A DNA stretch of 64,000 nt from Bacteroidetes bacterium HGW-Bacteroidetes-10 (GTDB lineage Bacteria > Bacteroidota > Bacteroidia > Bacteroidales > UBA932), in assembly GCA_002842695.1 (NCBI GenBank), contig PHDT01000011.1, positions 62,001 to 126,000 of the forward strand, written 5' to 3'. A program made the translations under genes and the position numbers. Position 1 is the stretch's first letter; the number at the start of each line of letters is the position of its first letter. Of this stretch, positions 2,384 to 31,108 are shown piece after piece. Under the pieces are notes generated by a model that was given only the letters and a program-made list of their open reading frames with translations, did not search any database and was not told the DNA's origin.

Positions 2384-3916
2384 ATGCGAAACTTGGTGAT
2401 TAACATTGGCGAAGGACTAACTTTTGAGAATATTGTCAGGGTAGTCATAAACAAAGAAAACGTTCAAAGCGGACATGATGCAGATAAAAGAGTTACAGAG
2501 AGTTTCGACTTTCTTACCTCTTTTGCGGGAGAGAAGGTTATTTATGGCATAAATACCGGTTTCGGGCCTATGGCTCAGTACAGGGTCGACGACAGCAGAC
2601 TGAGAGATTTGCAGTATAACATTCTGCGTTCTCACTCATGCGGGGCAGGTAAGCCAATTGATCCTGTATATGTAAGAGCATCAATGCTTGCGAGGTTGTC
2701 CAATTTCTGTATTGGAAAATCAGGCGTAAGCAGGCAGCTTACTGAGATTTTATCTGCATTTATCAATAACGAAATATATCCGGTTGTTCCTGAACACGGA
2801 GGAGTTGGCGCAAGCGGCGATCTGGTACAGATGGCACATATTGGCCTCACACTCATTGGAGAGGGGGAGGTCTTTTTTAAAGGGAAAAGGATGCCAGCCG
2901 CAGAAGCAATGAAGATATGCAATATATCTCCGTTGGAAATAAAGATAAGAGAGGGACTCGCCATAGCAAACGGAACCAGCGTTATGACCGGAATTGGAGC
3001 CGTGAATGTTCATTATGCTTCTATGCTCCTTAAATGGGCAACTATTGCATCGGTAATGATGAATGAGATTGCCTCTTCTTATGATGACTTTGTTGCAGAG
3101 CCTCTTATAGACAGCAGACCGCATCCGGGACAGAAAAAAGTGGCAGCTCAGATGCGAAGCCATTTCGAATCATCAAAAAGGCTCAGGAAGCGAGAAGCTG
3201 AACTCTATGAGGGAGCAAATCAGGAGAAAATTTTCGAACATAAAGTACAGGGATATTACTCGCTTCGCTGCGTGCCTCAGGTTCTTGGTCCTGTTTTGGA
3301 GACCATTGAGAGGGCGATGGAGGTAATTGAGAGAGAGTATAACAGTGTTTGTGATAATCCGGTGGTTGATCCTGCCTCAGGAAGCATTTATCACGGTGGA
3401 AATTTCCACGGAGACTATGTCAGCTTCGAGATGGACAAGCTAAAGATTGCAGTTGCAAAAATGACTATGCTTGCCGAAAGACAGCTGAATTATCTGTTCC
3501 ATGACAGAATTAACGGTATTCTGCCTCCTTTTGTAAATCTGGGAGTTCTGGGTCTGAACTATGGTTTGCAGGCAGCTCAGTTTACTGCAACATCAACTAC
3601 TGCCGAGTCGCAATCTCTCTGCATGCCTGTTTATGTTCACTCAATTCCAAATAACAACGACAATCAGGACATTGTGAGCATGGGTACAAACTCAGCTCTT
3701 ATAGCAGCAAGGGTTATTGAGAATGGTTTCCAGGTGATGGCCATTCATTTTATGGCTTTAATGCAGGCGATTGATTATCTTGAAATTAAGGATGATATTT
3801 CTGATGAAAGCAAGAGAGTATTCACCGAACTGAGAAAAATATCTCCAAAGTTTAGTGATGACACTCCAAAATATAAGGAGATTGAACAATTAGTACAATA
3901 TCTGAAAGAGAACTGA
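2384..3916 (+). CDS. Tyrosine ammonia-lyase (HAL/PAL/TAL family)
   Basis: A 510-residue aromatic amino-acid lyase. The MIO cofactor would form from Ala-Ser-Gly at 143-145 in GGVGASGDL, and Tyr54 in YGINTGFG is the catalytic tyrosine. The substrate-selectivity loop reads RSHSCGAGKP. As I remember it, the flexirubin TAL of Flavobacterium johnsoniae has nearly the same stretches (TGFGPMAQYR, LQYNLIRSHSSG, STTAESQ), which favours tyrosine over histidine. The reaction would be L-tyrosine to 4-coumarate plus ammonia, supplying the aryl starter of the polyene. It is first in the cluster and the next gene starts 1 base after its stop. Automated annotation may call it histidine ammonia-lyase; no other hut genes are nearby. 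Confidence 0.9.
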   Translation: MRNLVINIGEGLTFENIVRVVINKENVQSGHDADKRVTESFDFLTSFAGEKVIYGINTGFGPMAQYRVDDSRLRDLQYNILRSHSCGAGKPIDPVYVRASMLARLSNFCIGKSGVSRQLTEILSAFINNEIYPVVPEHGGVGASGDLVQMAHIGLTLIGEGEVFFKGKRMPAAEAMKICNISPLEIKIREGLAIANGTSVMTGIGAVNVHYASMLLKWATIASVMMNEIASSYDDFVAEPLIDSRPHPGQKKVAAQMRSHFESSKRLRKREAELYEGANQEKIFEHKVQGYYSLRCVPQVLGPVLETIERAMEVIEREYNSVCDNPVVDPASGSIYHGGNFHGDYVSFEMDKLKIAVAKMTMLAERQLNYLFHDRINGILPPFVNLGVLGLNYGLQAAQFTATSTTAESQSLCMPVYVHSIPNNNDNQDIVSMGTNSALIAARVIENGFQVMAIHFMALMQAIDYLEIKDDISDESKRVFTELRKISPKFSDDTPKYKEIEQLVQYLKEN

Positions 3917-3917
3917 T

Positions 3918-4646
3918 ATGAAATATGCTTTAGTCACGGGAGCAGGCAGGGGAATAGGCAGAGCCATCGCGCAGAGGCTTGCCTCTGCAGGCTACCATGT
4001 TCTTGTGAATTACAAATCCAATGATGCTGCGGCTGAAGAGACTGCGGCTCTTGTAAAGAGTGCCGGAGGTGATGCAACTCTGATGAAATTTGATGTTTCT
4101 GACAGAAAGGAGACAGAGACAGCTCTTAATCAGTGGAGATCAGAAAACGAAGGGGCCTGGATTGAGGTATTGGTAAACAATGCAGGAATAAGAAAGGATA
4201 ACCTCATGTTGTGGATGGAGCCTGCAGAGTGGGACAGCGTTATTGATACAAATCTTAATGGCATGTTCAATATTACACGGCTGCTTGTGAAAGATATGAT
4301 GGTAAGGAGGTTTGGCCGTATTGTAAATGTGGTGTCATTATCAGGAATAAAGGGACTCCCCGGACAGACCAACTATTCTGCTGCCAAGGGAGGAGTAATA
4401 GCTGCAACAAAGGCTCTGGCCCTTGAAGTGGCGAAAAAGGGTGTCACCGTAAATGGTGTAGCCCCCGGTTTTATTACAAGTGACATGACTTCAGACCTGG
4501 ATGAGGCTGCACTTAAGAAACAGATACCTGTTGAGAGGTTCGGCAAACCCGAAGAGGTGGCTGCACTGGTTGCATTTCTGGTTTCGCCGGAAGCATCATA
4601 TATTACAGGAGAGATAATATCAATAAACGGAGGAATATATACTTAG
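3918..4646 (+). CDS. 3-oxoacyl-ACP reductase, FabG-like SDR
   Basis: A 242-residue short-chain dehydrogenase. It has the TGAGRGIG dinucleotide loop at 7-14, NNAG at 87-90 and the YxxxK pair at Tyr153/Lys157, and ends with the ITGEIISINGG segment usual for FabG. It would reduce the beta-keto group on the ACP-bound polyene using NADPH. It fits tightly between the lyase and the first ketosynthase, so it is probably the cluster's dedicated reductase rather than the housekeeping fabG. Confidence 0.9.
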   Translation: MKYALVTGAGRGIGRAIAQRLASAGYHVLVNYKSNDAAAEETAALVKSAGGDATLMKFDVSDRKETETALNQWRSENEGAWIEVLVNNAGIRKDNLMLWMEPAEWDSVIDTNLNGMFNITRLLVKDMMVRRFGRIVNVVSLSGIKGLPGQTNYSAAKGGVIAATKALALEVAKKGVTVNGVAPGFITSDMTSDLDEAALKKQIPVERFGKPEEVAALVAFLVSPEASYITGEIISINGGIYT

Positions 4647-4652
4647 AATTGT

Positions 4653-5870
4653 ATGGCGAGAGTGGTTATAACAGGCATGGGGATCTACTCATGCATTGGA
4701 CAGAATCTTGATGAGGTGCTTGAGTCTCTCAGGGCCGGCAACTCCGGAATAGGGGTTGATCCTGCAAGAGAGGCCATGGGTTTCAGATCCTATCTGACAG
4801 GAATTCTTCCAAAACCGGATCTTAGCAAAAGACTGGACAGACGTAAAAGGATTTCAATGTCAGAAGAGGCAGCCTATGCATACATTGCAACAGAGGAGGC
4901 CCTTGCAAACGCTCTTATCGACAATGAGTTTCTCGATTCCCGCGAAGTGGGAATTCTCTATGGAAACGATAGCAGCGCCCAGGCAGTAATTGACGGTATT
5001 GACCTTATCAGGGAGAAAAAAAATACAACACTTGTTGGATCGGGGTCTGTATTTCAGTCCATGAATTCAACCGTGAGTATGAATCTGTCTGTTATTTACA
5101 GACTGAAGGGAATAAACCTGACCATTGCCGGTGCCTGCGCAAGCGGATCTCATGCAATAGGAATGGGCTATTTTATGATAAAGAATGGTCTACAGGATTG
5201 TATAATCTGCGGAGGGGCTCAGGAGGTTAATCCTTATGCGGTATGCAGCTTTGACGGGCTGAATGCCTTTTCTGTAAGAAATGACAACCCTAAGGGAGCA
5301 TCAAGGCCTTTTGATTCTGAGAGGGATGGTTTGGTTCCAAGCGGAGGCGCAGCTACTCTTATTCTGGAGAGCTATGAATCGGCAGTGAAGAGAGGGGCTC
5401 CAATTCTTGCGGAGGTATTGTCTTATGGCTTCTCATCAAACGGAGATCATATATCAGTCCCAAATATTGATGGCCCGAAAAGATCCCTCATTATGGCTCT
5501 TAAGCAGGCCGGTCTTTCTCCTGCAGACATTCAGTATATCAATGCTCATGCGACCTCTACGATTGTGGGGGATTACAACGAAGCCCTGGCAATTGATGAA
5601 GTATTCGGCGAGCTGAAGCCTTATGTTGGTTCTACAAAAAGCATGACAGGACATGAGATGTGGATGGCAGGTGCCAGCGAGGTTGTCTACTCTGTGCTAA
5701 TGATGAAGAACTCTTTCATAGCACCTACAATTAATTTTGAAAAGCCTGACGAAGCATCGTCAAGACTAAATATACCAAATAAAACAGTACCGTTTGAATT
5801 TAACACTTTCCTTTCCAATTCATTTGGGTTTGGAGGTACAAATTCTACGCTCATTATCAGAAATTTATAA
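4653..5870 (+). CDS. Beta-ketoacyl-ACP synthase (first of three)
   Basis: A 405-residue FabF-type condensing enzyme with an intact triad: Cys162 in GACASGS, His299 in NAHATST and His334 in MTGHEMWMAG. The last block differs from the usual TGHLLGAAG, suggesting a specialised chain or partner. It would extend the polyene with malonyl-ACP. A gene for an ACP follows after 20 bases. Which of the three KS proteins starts, extends or terminates the chain cannot be read from the sequence. Confidence 0.9.
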   Translation: MARVVITGMGIYSCIGQNLDEVLESLRAGNSGIGVDPAREAMGFRSYLTGILPKPDLSKRLDRRKRISMSEEAAYAYIATEEALANALIDNEFLDSREVGILYGNDSSAQAVIDGIDLIREKKNTTLVGSGSVFQSMNSTVSMNLSVIYRLKGINLTIAGACASGSHAIGMGYFMIKNGLQDCIICGGAQEVNPYAVCSFDGLNAFSVRNDNPKGASRPFDSERDGLVPSGGAATLILESYESAVKRGAPILAEVLSYGFSSNGDHISVPNIDGPKRSLIMALKQAGLSPADIQYINAHATSTIVGDYNEALAIDEVFGELKPYVGSTKSMTGHEMWMAGASEVVYSVLMMKNSFIAPTINFEKPDEASSRLNIPNKTVPFEFNTFLSNSFGFGGTNSTLIIRNL

Positions 5871-5890: not shown

Positions 5891-6151
5891 ATGATTGATG
5901 CAGCCCTGATTGACAAAATTAACAATGTTCTGGCAGAAGAATTTGAAGTAGATATTCAGAAAATTTCGCCGGAAGCTCCTTTAATGGATACCCTGGATCT
6001 TGACAGTCTGGATCTCGTTGACATGGTGGTACTCATTGAACACAATTTCGGGTTTACCGTAGTTGCCAAGGATTTTGTTGGCATTAAGTCGTTCAATGAT
6101 TTTTATCACTTTATCAACAGCCGCATAGATGAAAAAGGAGCCAAGGAATGA
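5891..6151 (+). CDS. Acyl carrier protein (polyene arm)
   Basis: An 86-residue acidic protein with the DLDSLDLVDMV motif; Ser39 would carry the 4'-phosphopantetheine. It would hold the growing aryl polyene during extension by the neighbouring KS, KR and DH enzymes. The reading frame overlaps the next gene by 23 bases. No phosphopantetheinyl transferase gene was recognised in the window, so a housekeeping enzyme probably activates it. Confidence 0.92.
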   Translation: MIDAALIDKINNVLAEEFEVDIQKISPEAPLMDTLDLDSLDLVDMVVLIEHNFGFTVVAKDFVGIKSFNDFYHFINSRIDEKGAKE

Positions 6152-7025
6152 GTGGAGTGGTAAATCAAGAGGAGGAGCAACCGGATATCTCATCTTTGTA
6201 TTTATCATCAAGAGAGCAGGACTAAGAGCAGCATATGCTCTTCTCTCCTTTGTTGCCTTATATTTCATACCATTTGCACCTCGTGCCACTGCTTCTGTAT
6301 GGCGCTATTCAAGAACAATATTGGGTAAGGGAAGAGCCGCATCGGTTCTTTTTGTTTACAGAAATTACCTGAATCTTGGCATCTCTCTTATTGACAAGAC
6401 TGCAGTTTCTGCAGGACTTGGCGACAGGTTCTTATTCGAATTTGATGAGCCGGCCAATGTGAGCAGCATTCTTTCCGGAAACAGCGGAGCAGTAATTATT
6501 GGAGCCCATTTTGGAAACTGGGAGGTGGGTGCTCCCTATTTTGGGAAGTATGGCAAGAGGATGAGGGTAGTTATGATGGATGCTGAGTTTCAGAGCATAA
6601 AAAAAGTGCTGGAGGAACAAAAGCAGCTGGACGCCTTCAGCCCAATCCCTATTAAAGATGATTCGTTTTCGCACATATTTGAAATTCGCGATGCACTCGA
6701 GAGGGGCGAATATGTAGCCATGCAGGGCGACAGACTCACACCTAACGGAAAGAGCGCTGAGGTTGAGTTTATGGGCAGGAGGGCACTTTTCCCCCTGGGA
6801 CCTTTTGTTCTTGCGGCAAGATTTGGTTATCCGGTAATATTCTACTTTGCCGTAAGGAGCGGACTAAGAAAATACAGATTTCACTTCTCACTGTACGAGC
6901 CCGCTAAGAGGCAGGGTACTGTCAGACCTGAAACAGACATATTGAATTCATACACCGCATATCTGGAGAAAACCGTTAAGGCCTCTCCGGGGCAGTGGTA
7001 TAACTTTTACAAATTCTGGCTATGA
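6129..7025 (+). CDS. LpxL/HtrB-like lysophospholipid acyltransferase
   Basis: A 298-residue membrane-associated acyltransferase. The HxxxxE catalytic motif is HFGNWE at 127-132 and a hydrophobic segment lies near residues 32-50. Family members transfer acyl chains from ACP to lipid A or related acceptors. Within this cluster it could transfer the finished polyene from its ACP to a lipid or the dialkylresorcinol. The ATG at 6129 overlaps the ACP gene; the ATG at 6148 is out of frame, so 6129 is the start. Its stop overlaps the next start by four bases. Confidence 0.87.
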   Translation: MKKEPRNEWSGKSRGGATGYLIFVFIIKRAGLRAAYALLSFVALYFIPFAPRATASVWRYSRTILGKGRAASVLFVYRNYLNLGISLIDKTAVSAGLGDRFLFEFDEPANVSSILSGNSGAVIIGAHFGNWEVGAPYFGKYGKRMRVVMMDAEFQSIKKVLEEQKQLDAFSPIPIKDDSFSHIFEIRDALERGEYVAMQGDRLTPNGKSAEVEFMGRRALFPLGPFVLAARFGYPVIFYFAVRSGLRKYRFHFSLYEPAKRQGTVRPETDILNSYTAYLEKTVKASPGQWYNFYKFWL

Positions 7026-8389
7026 GAACACAAACGAGAATGCTCCTCATATCTGCCAACAGACTTGCAGATCCATATCCTGTCTATCCAATTGGCTTGT
7101 CATATCTGCAGACCTATCTGAGGGAGAAACTTCCGTGGCTGGAGACCTCTGTTTGCGATATGAACATGATGGATATTGACGGGCTTAAGAGGAGAGTTGA
7201 GGAGTTCAGTCCAAACTATGTGGGGATATCAATTAGAAATATTGACGGAGCCAATTCACTTGACAGAACGAGCTTTATTCCAGGATATAAGGAGATTACT
7301 GATGCCGTAAGGGAGAAGACCAAAGCACCTGTTATTCTGGGTGGAGCCGGTTTTTCCATTTATCCGGCAAAACTGTTTGAAATTCTTAAGCCAGACTATG
7401 GAATTGCAGGTGAAGGGGAGGAGAGTCTCAGGCAGCTTGTAGAGTCGCTTGAAAAGGGAGAGGAGCCGGTTAATATTGAGGGGCTGATTTCTGCTCATAC
7501 AGGAGGTATAGTTCTGAAGCCACACAGTAATTACCTGAATTCTCTTAACCTTTCCTTTGACGAATCCCTCTCTGACTTTTACTGGGAGAAGAGCGGAATG
7601 CTCAACATCCAGACAAAAAGGGGCTGCTGCTATAACTGCATATATTGTTCATATCCTATTATTGACGGCAGAAAGGTAAGAACTCTGGATACAGATCTTA
7701 TTGTCGGAACACTGGAGAGACTGTACAAAGAGAAGGGAATTAACTATGTCTTCTTTACCGATTCTGTTTTTAATATACATAACAGCTACAATGCCGAACT
7801 TGCCGAGAAGATTATCAAAAGCGGAATTAAGATTAACTGGGGAGCATATTTCTCTCCTCATAACCTTACTGAAGATCTGATTGCACTCTTCAGGAGAGCG
7901 GGGCTTAAACATATTGAATTTGGAACAGAGTCGCTCTGCACAGAGCAGATGCACAGATACGGAAAGAATTTCTCTTTTGAGGATGTTATCACCAATTCAG
8001 AGTTATGTCTCAAATACAATATTTTCTATGCCCACTTCCTTATTCTTGGAGGATTGGGAGAGACAGAAAAGACGCTCAGGGAGACTATGGAAAACTCGAA
8101 AAAAATTCGCTATTCGGTATTTTTCCCATATATTGGTATGAGGATCTACCCGGGAACTCCACTGCAGAAAATTGCAATAGAGGAGGGACGAATCAGCCCG
8201 GATAATCCTCTTCTGGAGCCGACATACTATCTGGCAGACGGATTTGATCTGAAGAGCTGCAGAGAGATGGCAAACGACACCGGGAAAGCATGGATTTTCC
8301 CTGATGACCCTCTTGCGGAGGATATTGAAAGAATGAGAGTAGTAAAAAAGAAAAAAGGATTGATATGGGAGTATCTGAGAAAGCCATAG
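7022..8389 (+). CDS. B12-binding-type radical SAM protein
   Basis: A 455-residue protein. The N-terminal ~165 residues look like the Rossmann-like cobalamin-binding half (PIGLSYLQTYL, ILGGAGFSIYP, GIAGEGEESL). The radical SAM core starts at Cys202-x3-Cys206-x2-Cys209, the 4Fe-4S ligands. I see no canonical DxHxxG, so cobalamin binding may be base-off or absent. Such enzymes methylate or rearrange unreactive carbons. In this cluster it could modify the aryl ring or chain; the exact step is unknown. It overlaps the preceding gene by four bases. Confidence 0.85.
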   Translation: MRTQTRMLLISANRLADPYPVYPIGLSYLQTYLREKLPWLETSVCDMNMMDIDGLKRRVEEFSPNYVGISIRNIDGANSLDRTSFIPGYKEITDAVREKTKAPVILGGAGFSIYPAKLFEILKPDYGIAGEGEESLRQLVESLEKGEEPVNIEGLISAHTGGIVLKPHSNYLNSLNLSFDESLSDFYWEKSGMLNIQTKRGCCYNCIYCSYPIIDGRKVRTLDTDLIVGTLERLYKEKGINYVFFTDSVFNIHNSYNAELAEKIIKSGIKINWGAYFSPHNLTEDLIALFRRAGLKHIEFGTESLCTEQMHRYGKNFSFEDVITNSELCLKYNIFYAHFLILGGLGETEKTLRETMENSKKIRYSVFFPYIGMRIYPGTPLQKIAIEEGRISPDNPLLEPTYYLADGFDLKSCREMANDTGKAWIFPDDPLAEDIERMRVVKKKKGLIWEYLRKP

Positions 8390-8805
8390 TTGCAAGAGAG
8401 GAGATTGAGGGGCTGATTCCTCAGCGCCCGCCCTTTGTCTTTGTTCACAGCTATTACGGCGAGGAGGAGGGGTTGCACCATACTGGATTTCTTCCGGACG
8501 TAAGCACTCTTTTTGTTGAAAATGGAAAAATGCGCGAACAGGGTGTAATTGAGCATATTGCTCAGTCTGCTGCTGCATCTGTGGGATACGGATACCAAAT
8601 TAAGGGTGAGGAGGTGCCGGTTGGATTCATAGGAGCTGTGGCTGCTTTTGAACTGACAAAGTTGCCGGATGCGGGAGAAGAGATAAGAACAACAGTAAAA
8701 TTTGCAGGTGAGTTCGGAGGAATTTCACTGGTGGAGGCGGAATGCAGGCAGAGGGGAGAACTTATTGCAAAGACACAACTCAAGATATTTTTAAACATTC
8801 AGTAG
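8365..8805 (+). CDS. Hotdog 3-hydroxyacyl-ACP dehydratase, ApeP-like
   Basis: A 146-residue hotdog-fold protein with the QRPPFVFVHSYYG entry and the VIEHIAQSAAA helix (the acidic residue plus Gln of FabA/FabZ-type dehydratases). It would remove water from the 3-hydroxyacyl-ACP, forming one double bond of the polyene per cycle. It overlaps the radical SAM gene by 25 bases. A second, FabZ-like hotdog protein lies at 14911; either may be the main polyene dehydratase. Confidence 0.82.
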   Translation: MGVSEKAIVAREEIEGLIPQRPPFVFVHSYYGEEEGLHHTGFLPDVSTLFVENGKMREQGVIEHIAQSAAASVGYGYQIKGEEVPVGFIGAVAAFELTKLPDAGEEIRTTVKFAGEFGGISLVEAECRQRGELIAKTQLKIFLNIQ

Positions 8806-8814
8806 TTACTTGAA

Positions 8815-9261
8815 ATGAGAAAAAAGAGAGGGCTTAACAAAGCCGCACTGGTACACAGGCACAGCGTGAGAATCCGCTTCTCTGAAGTGGATTCCATGAA
8901 CATTGTCTGGCACGGCAATTATGTAAAATTGTTCGAGGATGGCAGAGAGGCATTCGGGAATCACTACGGAATAGGCTATCTTGATATTTACGGAGCCGGT
9001 TACACTGCTCCTGTTGTTGAGCTTCACTGCTCCTATATTCAGCCTCTTACATACGGAGATACTGCTGTTATCGAGACAAGATATATTTACCTGCCCTCTG
9101 CAAAGGTCCGTTTTGAATATGACATTTTCAGAGAGTCAGATAACGCACTGGTAGCTACCGGATATTCGCTTCAGGTATTCCTCGACAAAGAGGGTGCGCT
9201 TGAGTGGAACAATCCTGAGTTTTTCCTAAACTGGCAGAAGAGATGGATGGAAATAGAATAA
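8815..9261 (+). CDS. 4HBT-type acyl-CoA/ACP thioesterase
   Basis: A 148-residue hotdog thioesterase. The segment RFSEVDSMNIVWHGNY holds the family's Asp26 and the H-x-x-Y pair of 4-hydroxybenzoyl-CoA thioesterase relatives. It would hydrolyse acyl thioesters, for instance clearing stalled chains or releasing the product. Members of this family are common in aryl polyene clusters. It overlaps the next gene by 19 bases. Confidence 0.85.
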   Translation: MRKKRGLNKAALVHRHSVRIRFSEVDSMNIVWHGNYVKLFEDGREAFGNHYGIGYLDIYGAGYTAPVVELHCSYIQPLTYGDTAVIETRYIYLPSAKVRFEYDIFRESDNALVATGYSLQVFLDKEGALEWNNPEFFLNWQKRWMEIE

Positions 9262-12165: not shown

Positions 12166-12169
12166 AAGC

Positions 12170-23380: not shown

Positions 23381-24672
23381 AAAGAGATCCACGGATTCAG
23401 TTTAAAACCAGAAGCGAAATTCAATCGTTCCAGGAGGAGTCGCTTAGGGAGACCCTAGAGTATATCTCGCACAATTCACCCTTTTACAAACGCCTGTTTC
23501 TGGAAAAGGGGGTGGATATATCCTCTGTTCAGACGATAGCAGATCTCAGGAGGATTCCTACAACCTGCAAGGAGGATATTCAGCGTTACAGCAATGATTT
23601 TCTGTGCGTGCCAAGGAGTAAGGTTATTGATTATGTAACAACTTCTGGTACACTGGGAGAGCCGGTTACTTTCATGCTCACAGAAAATGACCTTGACAGA
23701 CTTGCATACAATGAGAAACTATCCTTTACTACTGCCGGCTGCCTTCCGGGAGAGACAATTCAGATAATGACTACAATTGACCGCCGGTTTATGGCAGGTC
23801 TTGCATATTTTCTTGGAGCGAGAGAGCTGGGCTCGGGAATAGTAAGGGTAGGAAACGGTATTCCTGAACTTCAGTGGAGTTCGATAAACAGTCTGGCTCC
23901 GGAGACATGCATAGTTGTGCCATCATTTCTTGTTAAACTGGCTGAATATGCTGCCAAAAACGGAGAAGACTGCTGCAAATCTTCATTGAAAAGGGCTATA
24001 TGTATTGGAGAACCGCTAAGAGAGATTGATCTCTCTGACAACACCCTTACAAAGAGAATCGGACAACTCTGGCCCGGTCTCTCTCTCCACTCTACTTATG
24101 CATCGACTGAAATGCAGAGCTCATTCACAGAGTGCAGCCATCTGTGCGGGGCACACCATCAGCCGGATTTAATCATTATTGAAATTCTTGATGAGAATGA
24201 GAATCCGGTCAAGGATGGTGAGGTAGGGGAGCTTGTCATCACCACGCTGGGAGTGGAGGGGATGCCGCTGGTAAGATTCAGGACAGGAGACCTTTGCAGA
24301 GCTTATAATGAGCAGTGCAAATGCGGCAGAAACAGTACAAGACTCAGCCCGATTCTTGGCAGAAAGGGTCAGATGATAAAGTACAAGGGAACCACTTTGT
24401 ACCCCACTGCCCTTTACGATATTCTGGACAATATTGAAGGGATTATCAACTATCAGGTTCAGGTATATACAAACTCTCTGGGTACAGACGGAATCCAGAT
24501 AAAAATTGGAACAGCAACTCCCACCGACTCTTTCGAGAAGCGTATTAAAGAGCACTTCAGGGCTAAGATAAGAGTGGCACCAGATATAAGTTTTGAGCCT
24601 GTTGAACTGCTGGCCAAGGCGGTAATGCCACCGCAGAGCAGAAAGGCTATTAAGTTTGTGGATATGAGGTAA
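23377..24672 (+). CDS. PaaK-like adenylate-forming acyl ligase
   Basis: A 431-residue member of the phenylacetate-CoA ligase branch. It has the phosphate-binding loop TSGTLGEPV at 89-97, the adenylation motif YASTEMQS and VRFRTGDLC. The reaction would be ATP-dependent activation of an aromatic acid to its adenylate and transfer to CoA or ACP. Its natural substrate in this locus is 4-coumarate from the ammonia-lyase at 2384. It starts four bases before the end of the C45 gene; a 43-base gap with a promoter-like motif follows. Confidence 0.85.
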   Translation: MKRDPRIQFKTRSEIQSFQEESLRETLEYISHNSPFYKRLFLEKGVDISSVQTIADLRRIPTTCKEDIQRYSNDFLCVPRSKVIDYVTTSGTLGEPVTFMLTENDLDRLAYNEKLSFTTAGCLPGETIQIMTTIDRRFMAGLAYFLGARELGSGIVRVGNGIPELQWSSINSLAPETCIVVPSFLVKLAEYAAKNGEDCCKSSLKRAICIGEPLREIDLSDNTLTKRIGQLWPGLSLHSTYASTEMQSSFTECSHLCGAHHQPDLIIIEILDENENPVKDGEVGELVITTLGVEGMPLVRFRTGDLCRAYNEQCKCGRNSTRLSPILGRKGQMIKYKGTTLYPTALYDILDNIEGIINYQVQVYTNSLGTDGIQIKIGTATPTDSFEKRIKEHFRAKIRVAPDISFEPVELLAKAVMPPQSRKAIKFVDMR

Positions 24673-24715: not shown

Positions 24716-25324
24716 ATGAAAATTGTACTGGTAGTTTTAGCAATGTTTTTTTTAACCTCTTTCGGCCCCGAAACCGAGGAGCAGTTCTTTAACGACCTGG
24801 CAAAGCAATCCAGAGAGGTTGCAACAGTTAGTGGGACATTTATTCAGACAAAGCATATTAAGGTGCTCGGCGAAAAAGTTGAGTCTGGAGGAACTTTTTT
24901 TTACAAGAGGTCAGGAAATGTGAGATTCGATTACTCCACTCCAAAAACCATGTCAATTATCATGACAACCTCCAATATTCACATTTTGTCCAGAGGAAAA
25001 GCCACTACATTCTCACTGGAATCGCAAAAGGGTCTCTCAGACCTGGCCGGAGTAATGGAGGCCTGCATGGGAGGCAATATCACTTCAATTCCCAAAACTT
25101 ACAAGGTTACATACGAGCTTAAGCAGGAGAGGCATAAACTCTACATTGAGCCAAAAAATAAGAACCTGATAAGCCCCTACACCAGGATTGAACTCTCTCT
25201 CAATAAAAACAACCTCTCTCTTGAAGAGCTTATTCTTGTTGAAAAGACACAGGATTATACAGTATACAAGTTTTCATCAATTACTTTAAACCGGTCATTA
25301 CCTGCTACAATGTTCAGACCATGA
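24716..25324 (+). CDS. LolA-like carrier protein (second of two)
   Basis: A 202-residue protein with an N-terminal signal segment (hydrophobic 3-15, then SFGPE). The mature part carries LolA features: GTFIQTKHIK, GGTFFYKRSGNVRFDYSTPK and late Ser/Asn beta strands. It is only distantly like the LolA at 13727, so the two probably handle different cargo or different steps, one perhaps the polyene and one the dialkylresorcinol or conjugate. It overlaps darA by four bases. Confidence 0.83.
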   Translation: MKIVLVVLAMFFLTSFGPETEEQFFNDLAKQSREVATVSGTFIQTKHIKVLGEKVESGGTFFYKRSGNVRFDYSTPKTMSIIMTTSNIHILSRGKATTFSLESQKGLSDLAGVMEACMGGNITSIPKTYKVTYELKQERHKLYIEPKNKNLISPYTRIELSLNKNNLSLEELILVEKTQDYTVYKFSSITLNRSLPATMFRP

Positions 25325-26247
25325 CAGACAAAAAACACACCCATATTGCGGTCTTCTACTATACGCAGACAGGCCAGCTACTTGATATTTTAAAGTCACT
25401 AACCACTCCGCTTGAGGGGATGGGATGCAGGATAACCTATAAGGAGATTGTACCCGAGGAGCCATTTCCATTTCCATGGACATCAGATCAGTTTTATGAA
25501 ATATTTCCTGAATCAAGAGCAGAGGTGCCTTTTAAACTCAGAGAGATGGATTTTTCCGATGTTTTGGATGCAGACCTTGTGATTCTTGGCTACCAGCCAT
25601 GGTATCTTGCACCTTCAGTTCCTGTATCCTCATTTCTCCGCCTTGAGACTACGGGGAGCTACCTGAATGGACGGAATGTGCTTGCAGTTGCCGGTACCAG
25701 AAATATGTGGGTGTCTGCAATAAAAAGCATACAGGCCAGATTAAGGCAGCATAAGGCAAATCTTGTTGGTCATATAGCACTTGAAGACAGGCATCAGAAT
25801 CTTGTTAGCGTGCTTACAATATTCAGATGGCTCATTAACAACAAAAAAGAGGCTGGTAAATATCTTCCTGAAGCAGGAGTTTCAGAATGTGACATTAAAT
25901 CTGTTGCCGCAATATCTCAGGATCTATTCAACGCATTATCAGGGGGGGATTTCAGCCAGCTCCAGAAAGCTATTGTAGAGAAGGGAGGAATCAGATTTAA
26001 TCCTGGTCTCTACTTCATTGAAAGTAACGGAAACAAGATATGGGGAAAATGGGCCCACTGGGTACTTAAAAAGGGAAAATACGGAGATCCTGCAAGGAAA
26101 AATCGACTTTTGCTTTTCAAGTACTACCTGCTTACACTCATATTTGGAATATCTCCGTTTGGCTCTCTCTTCTTCACTCTTACGTGGCCTCTCAGAAAGA
26201 AGAGCTACAGAAAAATAGAAAAAAATATCTTATTTTTACAGAACTAA
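25321..26247 (+). CDS. darA: DarA-like dialkylresorcinol condensing enzyme
   Basis: A 308-residue protein that I recognise as the DarA-type cyclase/condensing enzyme of flexirubin loci. It opens with VFYYTQTGQL, similar to the phosphate loop of flavodoxin folds. PFPWTSDQFYEIFPES and the C-terminal FGISPFGSLFF membrane-like segment are other landmarks. DarA joins two beta-ketoacyl chains into the cyclohexanedione that becomes the 2,5-dialkylresorcinol. It is followed after 10 bases by darB, the fixed darA-darB order in Bacteroidota. Confidence 0.85.
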   Translation: MTDKKHTHIAVFYYTQTGQLLDILKSLTTPLEGMGCRITYKEIVPEEPFPFPWTSDQFYEIFPESRAEVPFKLREMDFSDVLDADLVILGYQPWYLAPSVPVSSFLRLETTGSYLNGRNVLAVAGTRNMWVSAIKSIQARLRQHKANLVGHIALEDRHQNLVSVLTIFRWLINNKKEAGKYLPEAGVSECDIKSVAAISQDLFNALSGGDFSQLQKAIVEKGGIRFNPGLYFIESNGNKIWGKWAHWVLKKGKYGDPARKNRLLLFKYYLLTLIFGISPFGSLFFTLTWPLRKKSYRKIEKNILFLQN

Positions 26248-26257: not shown

Positions 26258-27394
26258 ATGCGCCCAGTATATATTACCAAAACCTCTTCATTTCTGCCCA
26301 ACGATCCTGTTCAGAACAGTGAAATCGAGGATTATCTTGGGAGAATAGGCGACAAGCCGTCTAAAGCAAAGGATTTGATATTAAGGAACAACCAGATTAA
26401 GACCAGATACTACGCGCTGGACAAAGAGCAGAATGTCACACACTCTGCTTTTAAAATGGCGGTGGAATCTATCGAAAAACTTTACGGAGAAGGTATTAAT
26501 GCAGATAGTGTTCAGCTGGTTGCGGCAGGAACTGCATCTCAGGAGATGATAATGCCTTCGCACGGTGTACAGATACACGGGGAGATGGGTGGCTCTTCAA
26601 ACAGTGAGGTTGTCTCATTTGCAGGATCTTGCTGCAGCGGCATCCATGCATTAAAGTACTGCCAGATGGCTATAGCTACCGGAGATAAAGAGAATGCGGT
26701 TGCTGTTGCTTCCGAAAGACTCTCGGCCTGGATGAGAGCCTCTTTCTTTACAGAAGAGTACGAAAATCTTCAGAGACTTCAGGAGAACCCAATGATTGCA
26801 TTTGAAAAGGATTTTCTGAGATTTATGCTTTCAGACGGAGCTTCTGCAATGCTTTTGTCTGACAAACCTTCAGAAAGCGGACCCTCTCTCAAAATCGAGT
26901 GGATTGAACTTACCTCTTATGCCAATACAATGCCCACATGTATGTATGCCGGAGCAGAGTTTTTTAACGGAGAGCTTCAGGGATGGACAAGGTTTCCTGA
27001 AAAGGAGTGGACTTCAAGGTCCCTGTTTGCGCTTAAGCAAAATACAAAACTGCTGGGAGACAACATCGTGAAGCTTGGCGGAAAATTTCTCATGGAGGTC
27101 GCTTCAAAGAGAGAACTTGCACCAGAAGCTATTGACTGGTTTCTCCCTCATCTATCTTCAATGTACTTCAGAAATAAGATTTTCAGCGAACTGGAGTCTC
27201 TTGGATTTCTCATCCCACCAGAAAAGTGGTTTGTGAATCTGCCGCATGTCGGGAATGTGGCTGCTGCATCTGCTTTTCTGATGCTCGATGAACTTGTTAG
27301 GTCAGGAAGACTTAAAACCGGAGAGAAGATTCTTGTTATGGTGCCGGAGAGTGCCAGATTTTCATATGCTTTTGTTTACCTCACAGTCTGCTGA
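26258..27394 (+). CDS. darB: DarB-like ketosynthase III
   Basis: A 378-residue FabH/KAS III-fold enzyme. The nucleophile is Cys126 in GSCCSGIHAL; His298 in FLPHLSS and Asn333 in HVGNVAAAS complete the triad. DarB condenses two acyl thioesters by Claisen and Michael steps to give the dialkylresorcinol skeleton with DarA. Neighbourhood and length agree with known DarB proteins. Confidence 0.9.
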   Translation: MRPVYITKTSSFLPNDPVQNSEIEDYLGRIGDKPSKAKDLILRNNQIKTRYYALDKEQNVTHSAFKMAVESIEKLYGEGINADSVQLVAAGTASQEMIMPSHGVQIHGEMGGSSNSEVVSFAGSCCSGIHALKYCQMAIATGDKENAVAVASERLSAWMRASFFTEEYENLQRLQENPMIAFEKDFLRFMLSDGASAMLLSDKPSESGPSLKIEWIELTSYANTMPTCMYAGAEFFNGELQGWTRFPEKEWTSRSLFALKQNTKLLGDNIVKLGGKFLMEVASKRELAPEAIDWFLPHLSSMYFRNKIFSELESLGFLIPPEKWFVNLPHVGNVAAASAFLMLDELVRSGRLKTGEKILVMVPESARFSYAFVYLTVC

Positions 27395-27396: not shown

Positions 27397-27795
27397 ATGA
27401 AAATTAAAGATGTGCCGCAGGATGGCAAGATTCTGACAAACTCAGAAGTTAGGGATGTCTGTTATGCAGTTGACGAGAACGGAGACTACAAACAGGTGAT
27501 TAGTGTTGGATGGGATCCCAAGAATGAGGCTATAGACTACGCCTGGGAGACAATTGCAGAGGAGTGTGAAGAGATTAAAAAAGAGGTGATTGCAGGAAAT
27601 GCAAGCCCTTTGGCTTACCATATTCACCGCTTGGTAATGACTCCGGATATTCTGGCCTCTTATTCAGGTTTCTCTAAGAGAGAGATTAAGAGATGGTGCA
27701 AGGCAAAGCACTTCGCAAAAATGAGCCCCGGAGAGCTGCAAAGAATAGCAGACGCTCTCCGGATTGAAGTAAATAAATTAGTTTCCATAGATTGA
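27397..27795 (+). CDS. Small conserved cluster protein, function unknown
   Basis: A 132-residue soluble protein that I do not recognise as a named family. The N-terminal half is strand-rich with an acidic helix (AEECEEIKKEV). Residues about 90-132 (SGFSKREIKRWCKAKHF, then GELQRIADALRIE) look like the last helices of a Cro/CI-type helix-turn-helix. It lies 2 bases after darB and 1 base before the BtrH-like gene. It could be a small regulator or an accessory factor. Confidence 0.65.
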   Translation: MKIKDVPQDGKILTNSEVRDVCYAVDENGDYKQVISVGWDPKNEAIDYAWETIAEECEEIKKEVIAGNASPLAYHIHRLVMTPDILASYSGFSKREIKRWCKAKHFAKMSPGELQRIADALRIEVNKLVSID

Positions 27796-27796: not shown

Positions 27797-28810
27797 ATGC
27801 AGCTCGAATTCATACACAAGCCATCAGGTCATTGCGAAAACGGCGTTGTGAGCAATTTGCTCAGATTTTACGGGAAAGAGGTAAGTGAAGCGATGGTGTT
27901 CGGCCTCGGTTCGGGACTATTCTTTGCCCATATGCCATTCATTAAGCTTCACGGCATGGCAGTTACCTCTTTCAGACCATATCCGGGAGAGATTTTTGCC
28001 CGTGTTGTTAAGCTCCTGAATGTGAAGATGAAAAAATATAAATTCAGGGACAGGGATAAAGCAATGGAGAGGCTGGATGAGGTTTTACTTACCGGCACAC
28101 CCGTTGGTATGCTTGTAGGGGTATACCATCTTCCATATTTCCCCAAGGAGTATCGTTTTCACTTTAATGCCCACAATATTTGCGTTATTGGCAAAGAGGG
28201 CGACATATACACTGTTTCTGATCCTGTTGTTGTCGACAAATGTACACTTAGCTCAGATGAACTTAAGGTGGTCAGATTTGCCAGCGGGACCTACCCTCCG
28301 AGGGGAAGAATGTACCATATAACAGATGCCAGCGGAATTCACCAGCCAAACGGCGAGGCCATCAGAAGGGCTATTCTCAGAAATTGCAGCAGAATGATTC
28401 ATATTCCTCTTCCTATGTTTGGTGTTGACGGAATAAGATACCTTGCCGGCAGGATGAGAAAGTGGGAGAAGAAGATGGGCAGTAAGAGAGCAGCCCTCAA
28501 TCTTGCTCAGGTAATCAGGATGAACGAGGAGATAGGAACAGGGGGAGCAGGATTCAGGTTTATTTATGCTGCCTTTTTGCAAGAGGCTGCTGCGGTAATG
28601 AATCAGCCTTCACTGCGCGACTTCTCTGCTCAGATGACAGCAGCGGGAGATATGTGGAGAGATTTCTCCTATAATGCGGCAAGAATGTTCAAAAAGAGGG
28701 ACGGTGATCTCATGACATATAATATTCTTGCCGAAAAACTGGAAAGAATTGCCGATAAGGAGGAGTCAATTTTCCGCGGCTTAGAAAAACTGATGAAGAA
28801 TGCACGATAG
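27797..28810 (+). CDS. BtrH_N-domain protein, putative acyltransferase
   Basis: A 337-residue protein. Its start, GHCENGVVSNLLRFYG with Cys13, and FGLGSGLFFAHMP match the BtrH N-terminal domain, a cysteine-peptidase-like fold. BtrH of butirosin biosynthesis transfers an ACP-bound acyl chain to an amino-sugar. Here it may transfer an ACP-bound chain to a hydroxyl or amine, for example joining polyene to dialkylresorcinol. The C-terminal half is helical and resembles DUF4872. The stop overlaps the ABC ATPase start. Confidence 0.82.
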   Translation: MQLEFIHKPSGHCENGVVSNLLRFYGKEVSEAMVFGLGSGLFFAHMPFIKLHGMAVTSFRPYPGEIFARVVKLLNVKMKKYKFRDRDKAMERLDEVLLTGTPVGMLVGVYHLPYFPKEYRFHFNAHNICVIGKEGDIYTVSDPVVVDKCTLSSDELKVVRFASGTYPPRGRMYHITDASGIHQPNGEAIRRAILRNCSRMIHIPLPMFGVDGIRYLAGRMRKWEKKMGSKRAALNLAQVIRMNEEIGTGGAGFRFIYAAFLQEAAAVMNQPSLRDFSAQMTAAGDMWRDFSYNAARMFKKRDGDLMTYNILAEKLERIADKEESIFRGLEKLMKNAR

Positions 28811-29561
28811 CTTTGCCATAGAGATTTCTGACCTGGTTAAGAGATACCCCGGCAGGCTCAATCCGACTCTTGACGGGCTGACCCTTAAAATTCCCGCAGG
28901 ATCGCTCTTTGGGCTTCTTGCGCCCAATGGTGCCGGCAAGACTACCACTATAGACATTCTTTGCGGGCTTAAGAAATTTAATTCGGGGACTATTTCGGTT
29001 AATGGTTTTTCGGTTCCTTCCGGGCTGAGAAAAATCAAACAGATAATGGGTCTCGTTCCCCAGGACATTGCTCTTTTCCCGCTTCTGACAGGAAGGGAAA
29101 ATCTTAAGGTAATTGGTGGAATTTACGGAATACCAAAAGCTGAGTTAAAAGGGAGGGCAGATGAATTACTGGAGAGGTTCGGTCTGACAAACAGCGCAGA
29201 TAAACTTGTCTCTGAGTATTCAGGAGGGATGAAACGAAGAATCAATATAATTGCAGGTCTTCTTCATATTCCAAAGATTCTGATTCTTGATGAACCAACA
29301 GTAGGAGTGGATGCTCAGTCCAGAAATCTTATTCTGGAGGAGCTTATAAAGATAAACAGGCAGGGTACTACTATTCTCTTCATTTCACACTATCTGGAAG
29401 AGGCAGAGTGTATCTGCGACAGAGTAGCACTTATGGATGGCGGTAAAATTATTCTTGAGGGAAATCCCCGTGATCTGACAGATTCACACCCAGAGTGCAG
29501 AAATCTGGAATCGTTATATATTAAGTTAACCGGTAAGCAGATGAGGGATACATATGAATAA
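28800..29561 (+). CDS. ABC transporter ATP-binding protein
   Basis: A 253-residue ABC-2-type ATPase. Walker A is APNGAGKTT at 41-49, the signature is EYSGGMKRR, and Walker B is ILILDEPTVGVD; the H-loop is ISHYLEE. It would power the permease encoded next, exporting a lipid-like intermediate or the finished pigment across the inner membrane. It overlaps both neighbours. Confidence 0.92.
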   Translation: MHDSFAIEISDLVKRYPGRLNPTLDGLTLKIPAGSLFGLLAPNGAGKTTTIDILCGLKKFNSGTISVNGFSVPSGLRKIKQIMGLVPQDIALFPLLTGRENLKVIGGIYGIPKAELKGRADELLERFGLTNSADKLVSEYSGGMKRRINIIAGLLHIPKILILDEPTVGVDAQSRNLILEELIKINRQGTTILFISHYLEEAECICDRVALMDGGKIILEGNPRDLTDSHPECRNLESLYIKLTGKQMRDTYE

Positions 29562-30828
29562 CAGACTTAAATATCTGCTCTATAAAGATTTTATAATGCT
29601 GGGAAGAGATTTTGCCGGCATTATCCTGATGTTTATTATGCCCATAGCTCTGGTTATTCTAATGGCAAACCTGCAGGACAGCACACTTAATGCAGTCAAG
29701 GGCACAAAAATTCAGCTTCTTCTGGTTAACAAGGATAAAGGCGAGCTGGGTGAAGCTATTGTAAAGGAGATAGTCTCAACCGGACTGTTTCAGATTGAAA
29801 CGGATGGAGTAGAATCAATAAACTCCCCGGCTGAGATGGAGAAGAGAATCTCCCCGGCAGAGAATCTTCTGGGTATTTTTATTCCTGAAAATTCAACCGA
29901 GATGATAAGGGGCAATGTTCAGAGATTTGTTGTAAGTGCTTTTAACGGTGTTCAGAAAGAGCCGTTCAGGGATGAGATCAAACTCTCAATTATTCTGGAC
30001 CCGCAGGCTAAGGGATCTTTTTATACGGTTCTTATGAGTACACTCAGGGAGCGGGCACAGAAGGTTCAGTTTGAATATATCCTGAAAGAGATAACAAATC
30101 AGGTAAATACTATATCGCCGGTAGTTGTTTCCACAGGGAATTTTTCCGGGGAGCAGTTTACAATAGATGCACGCTTTGCAACCAGAACCGGCAGCAATAT
30201 TGTTCCCAACTCAGTACAGCATAATGTTCCGGCATGGAGTCTTTTCGCAATATTCTTTATTGTGGTTTCACTCTCCGGTAACATAATAAAGGAGAGGGAA
30301 GGGGGGAGCTTTACAAGACTGCTCACAATGCCCTGTACATATGCAGAATATCTTATGAGTAAAGGCATTACTTATCTGTCTGTTGCACTTATTCAGTTTG
30401 GAGTTATGCTCCTTATCGGAGTCTATGTGCTGCCTCTTACAGGCCTTCCGTCACTGGAACTTGGCCAGTCTCTTTTCTCGCTCTTCTTTGTGGGATTTGC
30501 TTCGGCAGTAGCAGCTATAGGATATGGAATCGCAATAGGCAATGTGGCATCAACATCACAGCAGGCATCAGTTTTTGGCGCCGTGTCAGTTGTAATTATG
30601 GCTGCTGTAGGCGGAGTATGGATTCCGCAGTTTCTTATGTCGCCGCATATGCAGATTATCAGCATGCTCTCTCCCATGAACTGGGGAATGTCTGGCTTTT
30701 ACAGCCTCTTTCTCAGAGACGAAGGTTTTCTGGCAATTCTTCCCGAAGGTCTGGCTCTTATCGCCTTTGGTTTTGCCTGTTTTATGATAGCCCTCTATTC
30801 CAGGAGACAAATCAGATCAAATTTTTAA
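29554..30828 (+). CDS. ABC-2 type permease
   Basis: A 424-residue membrane protein: one helix near 17-37, a large periplasmic domain to ~225, then five or so helices. The layout is that of ABC-2 permeases (NIIKEREGGSFTRLLTMP is the usual linker). It pairs with the ATPase before it (8-base overlap). Confidence 0.9.
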   Translation: MNNRLKYLLYKDFIMLGRDFAGIILMFIMPIALVILMANLQDSTLNAVKGTKIQLLLVNKDKGELGEAIVKEIVSTGLFQIETDGVESINSPAEMEKRISPAENLLGIFIPENSTEMIRGNVQRFVVSAFNGVQKEPFRDEIKLSIILDPQAKGSFYTVLMSTLRERAQKVQFEYILKEITNQVNTISPVVVSTGNFSGEQFTIDARFATRTGSNIVPNSVQHNVPAWSLFAIFFIVVSLSGNIIKEREGGSFTRLLTMPCTYAEYLMSKGITYLSVALIQFGVMLLIGVYVLPLTGLPSLELGQSLFSLFFVGFASAVAAIGYGIAIGNVASTSQQASVFGAVSVVIMAAVGGVWIPQFLMSPHMQIISMLSPMNWGMSGFYSLFLRDEGFLAILPEGLALIAFGFACFMIALYSRRQIRSNF

Positions 30829-30850
30829 AAATCAATAAATACCCAAAACT

Positions 30851-31108
30851 ATGGACGAACTTATCCTGAAACTAAAACAACAGATTATTGAGGCGCTGAA
30901 TCTTGAAGAGATTACTCCTGAAGATATTGACACAGACGCTCCGCTTTTTGGAGATGGTCTTGGTCTTGATTCTATTGATGCGCTGGAACTTGTGATTTTA
31001 CTGGAAAGAGAGTACGGAATAAGAATGGAAGATCCAAAAGCGAACAAGGAGGTATTCAGATCTGTAAGAACTCTTGCAGAGTATATTGAGAAGAACAGGA
31101 AGGCATAG
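30851..31108 (+). CDS. Acyl carrier protein (second, resorcinol arm)
   Basis: An 85-residue ACP with GLGLDSIDALELV; Ser41 would be phosphopantetheinylated. It closes the cluster and is close to darA and darB, so it probably carries the chains for the dialkylresorcinol, but it could also serve the polyene. Convergent with the gene at 31111, separated by two bases; no terminator is visible between them. Confidence 0.9.
   Translation: MDELILKLKQQIIEALNLEEITPEDIDTDAPLFGDGLGLDSIDALELVILLEREYGIRMEDPKANKEVFRSVRTLAEYIEKNRKA

What the first reader, a model, noticed from the sequence alone, without database searches (positions are those of the whole stretch)
2384..31108. Flexirubin-type aryl polyene-dialkylresorcinol cluster with its own transport set
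Twenty-six co-directional genes, most overlapping, combine tyrosine ammonia-lyase, KS/CLF-like pair, two ACPs, DarA and DarB, two LolA-like carriers, an MMPL fusion exporter and an ABC transporter. Flexirubins are well known in Flavobacteria and Cytophagia; such a complete, extended locus in what looks like an anaerobic Bacteroidales is less studied.
Basis: partly seen in the sequence, partly recalled or inferred. Interest (0 to 1): 0.78.

Follow-up and report, generated by a model that had tools for sequence, protein, structure and literature searches.

The report
Flexirubin pigment cluster with B12 methylase
This is a genuine flexirubin-type pigment gene cluster in a bacterium of the order Bacteroidales, and its unusual part is a vitamin-B12 enzyme that appears to do, by different chemistry, the ring-methylation step that related clusters leave to an ordinary methyltransferase.

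Summary
The locus is real: 28 (not 26) co-directional genes at 2384-31108, 17 of 27 junctions overlapping. Curated models for FlxA, FlxY, DarH, LolB2 and the StlD/DarB and DarG families are passed; two stricter DarB/DarG models are not. All 28 genes keep their order in Bacteroidales bacterium CF. The flexirubin reading stands, but such clusters are common: FlxA in 36, DarB in 24 of 198 order genomes.
In sister clusters the same slot often holds a methyltransferase 45% identical to E. coli ApeB, the predicted aryl-head methyltransferase. Of 36 TAL-positive genomes, 14 have the radical SAM gene, 19 the ApeB-type gene, 3 neither, none both (P about 2e-7); in 50 named radical SAM genomes 2 have both. 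A TAL tree needs 11 switches between them. The predicted fold is closest to TsrM, an aromatic C-methylase, and TsrM's Arg69 is conserved in 54 of 54 sequences. Best reading: a TsrM-like, B12-dependent aryl C-methyltransferase that repeatedly replaces ApeB; untested in the laboratory.

The parts
1401..2339 (+). HTH/WYL-type regulator, probable cluster regulator
   Evidence: Pfam HTH_11 29.5 bits, over its cut-off of 25; kept next to the cluster in L051, L053, L055, L056, L063. Role inferred.
2384..3916 (+). FlxA tyrosine ammonia-lyase (4-coumarate starter)
   Evidence: NCBIfam NF053541 813.6 bits, cut-off 700
3918..4646 (+). ketoreductase (FabG-like)
   Evidence: Pfam adh_short_C2; 44% identical to the E. 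coli CFT073 APE ketoreductase
4653..5870 (+). ketosynthase KS1
   Evidence: Pfam ketoacyl-synt N and C domains; active-site Cys visible in the translation
5891..6151 (+). acyl carrier protein 1
   Evidence: Pfam PP-binding
6129..7025 (+). LpxL-type acyltransferase
   Evidence: Pfam Lip_A_acyltrans
7022..8389 (+). B12-binding radical SAM protein, predicted aryl C-methyltransferase (replaces ApeB)
   Evidence: TIGR04072 404.1 bits, cut-off 360; TsrM-like fold; Arg72 = TsrM Arg69, 54 of 54; not found with the ApeB-type gene in any of 198 genomes
8365..8805 (+). small protein, probable dehydratase (name by place)
   Evidence: no Pfam/NCBIfam hit; 25-77% identical ORFs in the same neighbourhood in relatives
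8815..9261 (+). 4HBT thioesterase
   Evidence: Pfam 4HBT_2
9243..10982 (+). ketosynthase KS2 with C-terminal extension
   Evidence: Pfam; split in two ORFs in G222, G254, G209
10972..12165 (+). ketosynthase KS3
   Evidence: Pfam
12119..13060 (+). chain-length-factor-like ketosynthase homologue without active-site Cys
   Evidence: Pfam Ketoacyl-synt_2; sequence
13060..13734 (+). polysaccharide-deacetylase-like protein
   Evidence: Pfam PF01522
13727..14362 (+). LolA-like carrier 1
   Evidence: Pfam LolA
14334..14939 (+). LolB2 outer-membrane acceptor
   Evidence: NF053540 76 bits, cut-off 60
14911..15288 (+). FabA/ApeI-like dehydratase
   Evidence: Pfam FabA 29.1 bits
15281..16444 (+). glycosyltransferase 2 + DUF2062
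   Evidence: Pfam
16523..20272 (+). MMPL exporter + PlsC acyltransferase + class I methyltransferase; N-terminal end out of frame
   Evidence: Pfam; frame comparison with L051
20259..21704 (+). phytoene-desaturase-like FAD oxidoreductase
   Evidence: Pfam Amino_oxidase, NCBIfam CrtD/CrtI-like below cut-offs
21701..23380 (+). C45 autoproteolytic acyltransferase/hydrolase
   Evidence: NF040521 213 bits, cut-off 85
23377..24672 (+). FlxY 4-coumarate ligase
   Evidence: NF053551 668.9 bits, cut-off 520
24716..25324 (+). LolA-like carrier 2
   Evidence: Pfam LolA
25321..26247 (+). DarA (dialkylresorcinol aromatase, by place)
   Evidence: no family hit; beside DarB in relatives; low-confidence model, flavodoxin/WrbA-like matches
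26258..27394 (+). DarB ketosynthase/cyclase
   Evidence: NF005293 513.5 bits, cut-off 450
27397..27795 (+). DarG-family protein
   Evidence: NF053536 122.3 bits, cut-off 70
27797..28810 (+). DarH BtrH-related acyltransferase, candidate for the polyene-resorcinol ester
   Evidence: NF053550 418 bits, cut-off 300; role inferred
28800..29561 (+). ABC transporter ATPase
   Evidence: Pfam
29554..30828 (+). ABC-2 permease
   Evidence: Pfam
30851..31108 (+). acyl carrier protein 2
   Evidence: Pfam PP-binding; NF006617 89.3 bits, cut-off 70

Best explanation
The locus makes, anchors and exports a flexirubin-type pigment. FlxA turns tyrosine into 4-coumarate, FlxY activates it, the KS/KR/DH/ACP set extends it to an aryl polyene, DarB and DarA make a dialkylresorcinol, an acyltransferase (probably DarH) joins the two, and the LolA/LolB/MMPL/ABC proteins carry the product to the outer membrane. 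The 4-hydroxyphenyl head is methylated next to its hydroxyl group not by the usual ApeB-type SAM methyltransferase but by the TIGR04072 B12-radical SAM protein (7022-8389). That enzyme probably works like TsrM: methylcobalamin gives its methyl group to a ring carbon made nucleophilic by loss of the phenol proton, with Arg72 under the cobalt. Shown: gene content, slot, near-exclusivity, repeated swaps, predicted fold, Arg72. Inferred: the reaction, its ring position, whether it is polar or radical, and the rest of the pathway from the named families.
For: Cluster identity: FlxA, FlxY, DarH, LolB2, DarG-family and DarB-family models passed; 28 of 28 genes in the same order in Bacteroidales bacterium CF.
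Same slot: the radical SAM gene lies directly after LpxL in 64 of 80 named loci and between LpxL and the small dehydratase in 56 of 80. The ApeB-type gene lies directly after LpxL in 11 of 23 Bacteroidales contexts read, with the dehydratase next in 8 and DarA next in 1.
Known partner: that gene (G165 copy) is 45% identical over 350 residues to the only annotated methyltransferase of the E. coli CFT073 APE cluster, ApeB, which its authors predict to methylate the aryl head; their apeB deletion gave immature APE acids (PMC8253772, passages).
Exclusivity: 198 genomes, radical SAM 19, ApeB-type 25, both 0 (E up to 1e-60); of 36 TAL-positive genomes 14/19/3/0 for radical SAM/ApeB-type/neither/both, hypergeometric P 1.8e-7. 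0 of 80 named radical SAM loci hold it in the fetched stretch.
Repeated replacement: the TAL tree needs 11 changes between the two states; family f74 has one genus of each.
Chemistry: after TIGR04072 the best NCBIfam scores are BzaD (203.8 bits) and TsrM (130.8); a review lists BzaD among methyltransferases that shape the benzimidazole lower ligand (PMC8123684, passages). Foldseek's best PDB match is TsrM, E 1.1e-32, TM (query) 0.78-0.88, on a pLDDT 92.8 model. TsrM R69 aligns to Arg72, invariant in 54 of 54; in TsrM it sits under the cobalt and a Lys change hurts C2 methylation (PMC9692996, passages). Flexirubin's ring methyl comes from methionine with loss of one ring hydrogen (PMC3992019, section 4 part 1 and passages).
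Against: Of 50 named radical SAM genomes, 2 (G500, G540) also hold an ApeB-type gene, in both without aryl polyene genes in the stretch read around it; in G500 the radical SAM gene also lies outside such a cluster. Some of these 50 are the same genomes as in the 198. In 5 of 23 contexts the ApeB-type gene is likewise unlinked, and in 7 more it lies elsewhere in the cluster. Three TAL-positive genomes have neither. TsrM's E273 and E236 are not kept (Val249 in 49 of 54; Tyr211 in 54 of 54), so a radical route is open. The cluster has a second, class I methyltransferase domain on the MMPL protein that could do the ring methylation. TIGR04072 is named rSAM_ladder_B12, which I take to mean ladderane biosynthesis. 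ApeB's own activity is a prediction in the paper I read. Nothing biochemical was tested here.
Confidence: 0.78

Rival explanations
1. The radical SAM protein does not methylate; it joins or rearranges carbons of the polyene, as proposed for ladderane formation in anammox bacteria, so the product is a cyclised aryl polyene.
For: TIGR04072 is named rSAM_ladder_B12; Kuenenia FAS clusters also hold phytoene-desaturase-like, phenylacetyl-CoA-ligase-like, polysaccharide-deacetylase-like and B12-radical SAM genes (PMC2649909, passages); a 2026 preprint lists ladderane synthase among non-methylating cobalamin radical SAM enzymes (PMC13142503, passages).
Against: A methyltransferase of known kind takes the same slot and is seldom in the same genome (0 of 198, 2 of 50); nearest characterised families and fold are aromatic methylases; OxsB, a rearranging enzyme, ranks lower (E 4e-21); Arg72 is invariant.
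Confidence: 0.1
2. The ring is methylated by the class I methyltransferase domain fused to the MMPL exporter, and the radical SAM protein adds another group, for instance a second ring methyl or a methyl on the resorcinol chain.
For: The fused domain has good Pfam scores (Methyltransf_25 48.1 bits) and sits in the same cluster; flexirubins differ in methylation pattern (PMC3992019, passages).
Against: The fused domain is also in G165, which carries the ApeB-type gene in its cluster (45% identical over 205 residues), so it does not explain why the other two exclude each other. The test is thin: in G254, which has neither methylase, only a 59-residue match at 27% was seen, and none in G209.
Confidence: 0.1
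3. The exclusivity is only lineage sorting: two old cluster types, each inherited whole, with no functional equivalence.
For: The labels cluster on the TAL tree more than shuffled labels (0 of 500 as low), and whole clusters may move together.
Against: 11 changes between the two states on the TAL tree, with 7 forced by starred branches for the radical SAM group; L120 (radical SAM) nests among ApeB-type rows and L125 pairs with G153; family-level counts over 31 families still give P 6e-7.
Confidence: 0.08

Closest known systems
Flexirubin clusters of Flavobacterium johnsoniae (37 kbp, darB Fjoh_1102) and Chitinophaga pinensis (flxA-flxY plus a separate dar cluster)
   Same: FlxA, FlxY, several ketosynthases, reductases, dehydratases, polysaccharide deacetylase, acyltransferase, LolA, glycosyltransferase, exporter, DarA/DarB (PMC3992019 section 4 part 1). 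The two named loci were not at hand; I compared with unnamed FlxA genomes of the same class (G222, G254, G209), which show 23, 25 and 26 of the 28 gene kinds in the stretches read.
   Different: B12-radical SAM gene present (0 of 24 other FlxA genomes in the phylum sample have it); dar/ABC block at the 3' end; KS2 in one ORF; no FAD halogenase-like gene in the window, as found beside TAL in G222, G254, G209.
E. coli CFT073 aryl polyene cluster (apeA-R)
   Same: KS, KR, TE, glycosyltransferase, LolA, MMPL, acyltransferase, DH, CLF and ACP proteins match window proteins at E below 0.01
   Different: No TAL, Dar genes or radical SAM gene in its annotation; has ApeB. Its AMP ligase and DUF3261 protein gave no match at E 0.01.
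TsrM, tryptophan C2-methyltransferase (6WTE)
   Same: Best fold match; Arg69 equivalent invariant
   Different: 21-25% identical in the Foldseek alignments; NCBIfam TsrM model 130.8 bits against a 500 cut-off; E273 and E236 not kept.
BzaD, B12 lower-ligand radical SAM protein
   Same: Second-best NCBIfam score, 203.8 bits
   Different: Far below its 450 cut-off; different pathway.
Anammox ladderane-associated B12-radical SAM protein (Kuste2803)
   Same: Named in the ladderane gene-cluster study as a radical SAM enzyme with a B12-binding domain (PMC2649909, passages)
   Different: Its sequence was not fetched here, so TIGR04072 membership was not tested.

Membership tests
Flexirubin-type biosynthetic cluster | FlxA tyrosine ammonia-lyase and FlxY ligase | tested here: met
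   813.6 bits (cut-off 700) and 668.9 (520)
Flexirubin-type biosynthetic cluster | DarB dialkylresorcinol ketosynthase | tested here: inconclusive
   StlD/DarB family passed (513.5, cut-off 450); stricter resorcinol_DarB missed (512.6 against 550)
Flexirubin-type biosynthetic cluster | DarA | tested here: inconclusive
   no family model hit; place and 32-57% identity to ORFs beside DarB; low-confidence fold
Flexirubin-type biosynthetic cluster | LolB2 and DarH accessory proteins | tested here: met
   76 bits (60) and 418 (300)
Flexirubin-type biosynthetic cluster | flexirubin-specific DarG | tested here: not met
   flexirubin_DarG 132.3 against 170; the wider DarG family is passed, 122.3 against 70. 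I therefore say flexirubin-type, not proven flexirubin.
Flexirubin-type biosynthetic cluster | polyene-resorcinol ester pigment with KOH shift | not testable with these tools
   needs culture or heterologous expression
TIGR04072 B12-radical SAM | curated cut-off; CxxxCxxC; B12-binding domain | tested here: met
   404.1 bits (360); Cys 202/206/209 in 54 of 54; PF02310 41 bits (32.1)
TsrM family (TIGR04428) | curated cut-off | tested here: not met
   130.8 against 500
TsrM-like polar methylase (mechanism) | Arg under the cobalt | tested here: met
   R69 = Arg72, 54 of 54, by sequence alignment; no cofactor was modelled
TsrM-like polar methylase (mechanism) | Glu273 ligand of the iron-sulphur cluster | tested here: not met
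   Val/Ile/Leu 249 in 54 of 54
Ladderane-forming enzyme | cyclobutane formation | not testable with these tools
   needs product chemistry; described as proposed in the passages read

The most novel reading that the evidence does not exclude
Across many Bacteroidales families the aryl polyene/flexirubin head is methylated by a B12-dependent, TsrM-like enzyme that has repeatedly taken over from ApeB. The name 'ladder' for TIGR04072 would then be misleading: the family's main work would be aromatic C-methylation, and anammox ladderane clusters would be offshoots of aryl-polyene machinery whose B12-radical SAM member is a methylase or was turned from methylation to ring closure.
Probability: 0.3. 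Interest if true: 0.8.

Novelty: new variant of a known kind. Interest (0 to 1): 0.6.

Why it matters
It would be a case of the same ring methylation being done by two unrelated enzymes that swap in one operon slot, in a pathway behind an abundant class of bacterial pigments. It would link vitamin B12 supply to outer-membrane pigment chemistry in Bacteroidales, and bear on how ladderane-type clusters arose.

Tried and rejected
Rejected: 'a rare flexirubin outlier' (FlxA 36 and DarB 24 of 198 order genomes). Rejected: 'the radical SAM gene marks an anaerobic version of the pathway'. Among TAL-positive genomes, strong haem-copper oxidase hits (above 380 bits) occur in 3 of 14 with the radical SAM gene, 6 of 19 with the ApeB-type gene and 1 of 3 with neither, and two Flammeovirga records carry the radical SAM gene. 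Considered: that it replaces the FAD halogenase-like protein found beside TAL in G222, G254 and G209; against this, both Flammeovirga loci have both and the slot differs.

Led nowhere: a DarA fold from three sequences gave pLDDT 65; its Foldseek list holds flavodoxin/WrbA folds and receptor chains, at least one of them a stated flavodoxin fusion. No anammox sequence was reached, so the ladderane link was not tested. Paper searches for aryl polyene with radical SAM (8 papers) or cobalamin (9) gave, by title and abstract start, nothing on this enzyme; flexirubin with radical SAM gave 0. Of these 17 listings I opened one paper (PMC9902471, passages). In one search the three sets whose names held a space showed no hits because the lookup broke; one search repeated the two G195 sets and found the clusters, the G064 set (L204) was not repeated.

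Dropped before counts: of 23 radical SAM loci, 7 were left out of alignment A1 (L032 with a stop, L039 the window itself, L046-L050 below the cut-off); G064 (280 bits, below cut-off) was kept in the 19. Of 80 named loci, 53 entered A3 (with the window, 54 rows). The TAL tree holds 79 sequences (50 radical SAM with the window, 23 ApeB-type, 6 neither), only those with a near-complete TAL in the stretch; labels are by genome, so unlinked ApeB-type genes count. Contexts of 2 of 25 ApeB-type Bacteroidales genes (G046, G123) and of G464 in the phylum sample were not read around the gene. (DarB) was given 36 of the 80 named loci, 51 handles (50 genomes).

Full report
What is there. Window 2384-31108 holds 28 genes on one strand, 17 of 27 junctions overlapping, largest gap 78 bases. 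The window lies in G000:C23, a 2.41-Mb genome in 42 contigs, 93.5% complete. NCBIfam models for FlxA, FlxY, DarH, LolB2 and the DarG and StlD/DarB families are passed; two stricter models (resorcinol_DarB, flexirubin_DarG) are missed. The same 28 genes in the same order lie in Bacteroidales bacterium CF (record titled complete genome; G498). The closest named relative by the radical SAM protein is MAG HGW-Bacteroidetes-14 (92% identical), where 17 of the cluster's proteins match at 64-96% before the fetched stretch ends.

Not rare. In 198 genomes drawn from the order, FlxA is in 36 and DarB in 24. In 296 genomes drawn from the phylum, FlxA is in 25, the window's included. The two other sampled genomes of the window's own family (G008, G126) have neither.

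The odd gene. 7022-8389 encodes a B12-binding radical SAM protein that passes TIGR04072, 'rSAM_ladder_B12'. In the phylum sample it is in 2 of 296 genomes, the window's and one below the cut-off; none of the 24 other FlxA genomes there has it. In the order sample it is in 19 of 198. It follows the LpxL-type acyltransferase directly in 64 of 80, with the small dehydratase next in 56 of those.

The swap. In TAL clusters without it, the slot is often filled by a class I methyltransferase of about 362 residues. The G165 copy is 45% identical over 350 residues to C_RS05645 of E. coli CFT073, the only annotated methyltransferase of that aryl polyene cluster. The E. coli study names it ApeB, predicts that it methylates the aryl head, and found that the apeB deletion makes immature APE acids (PMC8253772, passages). 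In the 198 genomes 19 have the radical SAM gene, 25 the ApeB-type gene and none both; of 36 TAL-positive genomes 14 have the first, 19 the second, 3 neither. Chance overlap of zero has P 1.8e-7 by genome and 6e-7 by family; both treat units as independent, which they are not fully. A TAL tree of 79 sequences needs 11 changes between the two states, and starred branches force 7 for the radical SAM group. Thus the replacement looks recurrent. In the phylum sample all 7 genomes with the ApeB-type gene are among the 25 FlxA genomes. A second test on 50 named radical SAM genomes, some of them shared with the 198, found 2 with both, G500 and G540; there the ApeB-type gene has no cluster gene in the stretch read. 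In 5 of 23 Bacteroidales contexts the ApeB-type gene is also unlinked.

Why methylation. Flexirubin's ring methyl comes from methionine with loss of one ring hydrogen, and a 2014 study calls ortho to the hydroxyl the only pattern seen so far (PMC3992019, section 4 part 1 and passages). After TIGR04072, the best NCBIfam scores of the protein are BzaD and TsrM, both far below their cut-offs. A 54-sequence AlphaFold2 model (pLDDT 92.8) matches TsrM best (E 1.1e-32, TM 0.78-0.88 by query), ahead of MgmA, AprD4, OxsB, CysS and TokK. TsrM Arg69 aligns with Arg72, invariant in 54 of 54. A review describes Arg69 as lying under the cobalt, a Lys change spoiling indole methylation, while TokK and Mmp10 have Trp and Leu there (PMC9692996, passages). 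TsrM's Glu273 and Glu236 are not kept, so I leave open whether the route is polar or radical. A phenol's ortho carbon is nucleophilic once the proton leaves, as for indole C2 in TsrM; this comparison is my inference.

Not oxygen. The choice between the two enzymes does not follow aerobic respiration: strong oxidase hits in 3 of 14 and 6 of 19 TAL-positive genomes. The window's genome has 6 B12-binding-domain hits, this gene included, so B12 use there is plausible.

Three head tailorings. FlxA genomes G222, G254 and G209 of the same class have neither methylase but an FAD protein beside TAL with a WxWxIP motif, which I recall as the mark of flavin halogenases; two Flammeovirga loci have both this protein and the radical SAM gene. 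The window has no match to it. Reported flexirubins vary in methylation and chlorination (PMC3992019, passages).

Damage. The MMPL ORF called at 16523 lacks the start seen in L051: that start and about 36 codons are readable in another frame just upstream, then the sequence departs by an apparent short deletion. It may be an assembly error or a real break; if real, export would suffer.

Verdict. A true flexirubin-type cluster, common in its order, in a variant where a B12-dependent enzyme most likely does the aryl methylation. No paper listed appeared to propose this, within an open-access library and by the titles and abstract starts seen.

Noticed in passing
window 16444-16560: The MMPL/acyltransferase/methyltransferase gene appears frame-broken near its 5' end relative to L051 (HGW-Bacteroidetes-14): about 36 N-terminal codons lie in another frame, followed by an apparent short deletion.
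   Followed up: partly
L116 and L117 (Flammeovirga): The radical SAM gene and an FAD halogenase-like gene occur in the same aryl polyene cluster of a genus I recall as aerobically grown.
   Followed up: partly
L218 (G399) and G464:C1:556038-557111: The ApeB-type methyltransferase match carries one internal stop in these two genomes; in L218 it lies beside TAL and the FAD halogenase-like gene.
   Followed up: no
L046-L050: A second, more distant group (27-33% identical to the window protein) of B12-radical SAM proteins matches TIGR04072 below its cut-off; no cluster gene is near in the roughly 4-kb stretches.
   Followed up: no
L086, L093, L098, L100, L112, L126: Clusters with two tandem DarG/DarH-like pairs and the ABC transporter but no DarA/DarB in the fetched stretch, suggesting that these proteins may serve aryl polyenes without resorcinol too.
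   Followed up: no
window 41268-46739: V/A-type ATPase genes (subunit I and two catalytic-type subunits) on the minus strand.
   Followed up: no
L234 (G500): In the Prevotellaceae MAG behind L060 a dar block sits with aryl polyene genes while the radical SAM and ApeB-type genes lie elsewhere.
   Followed up: partly
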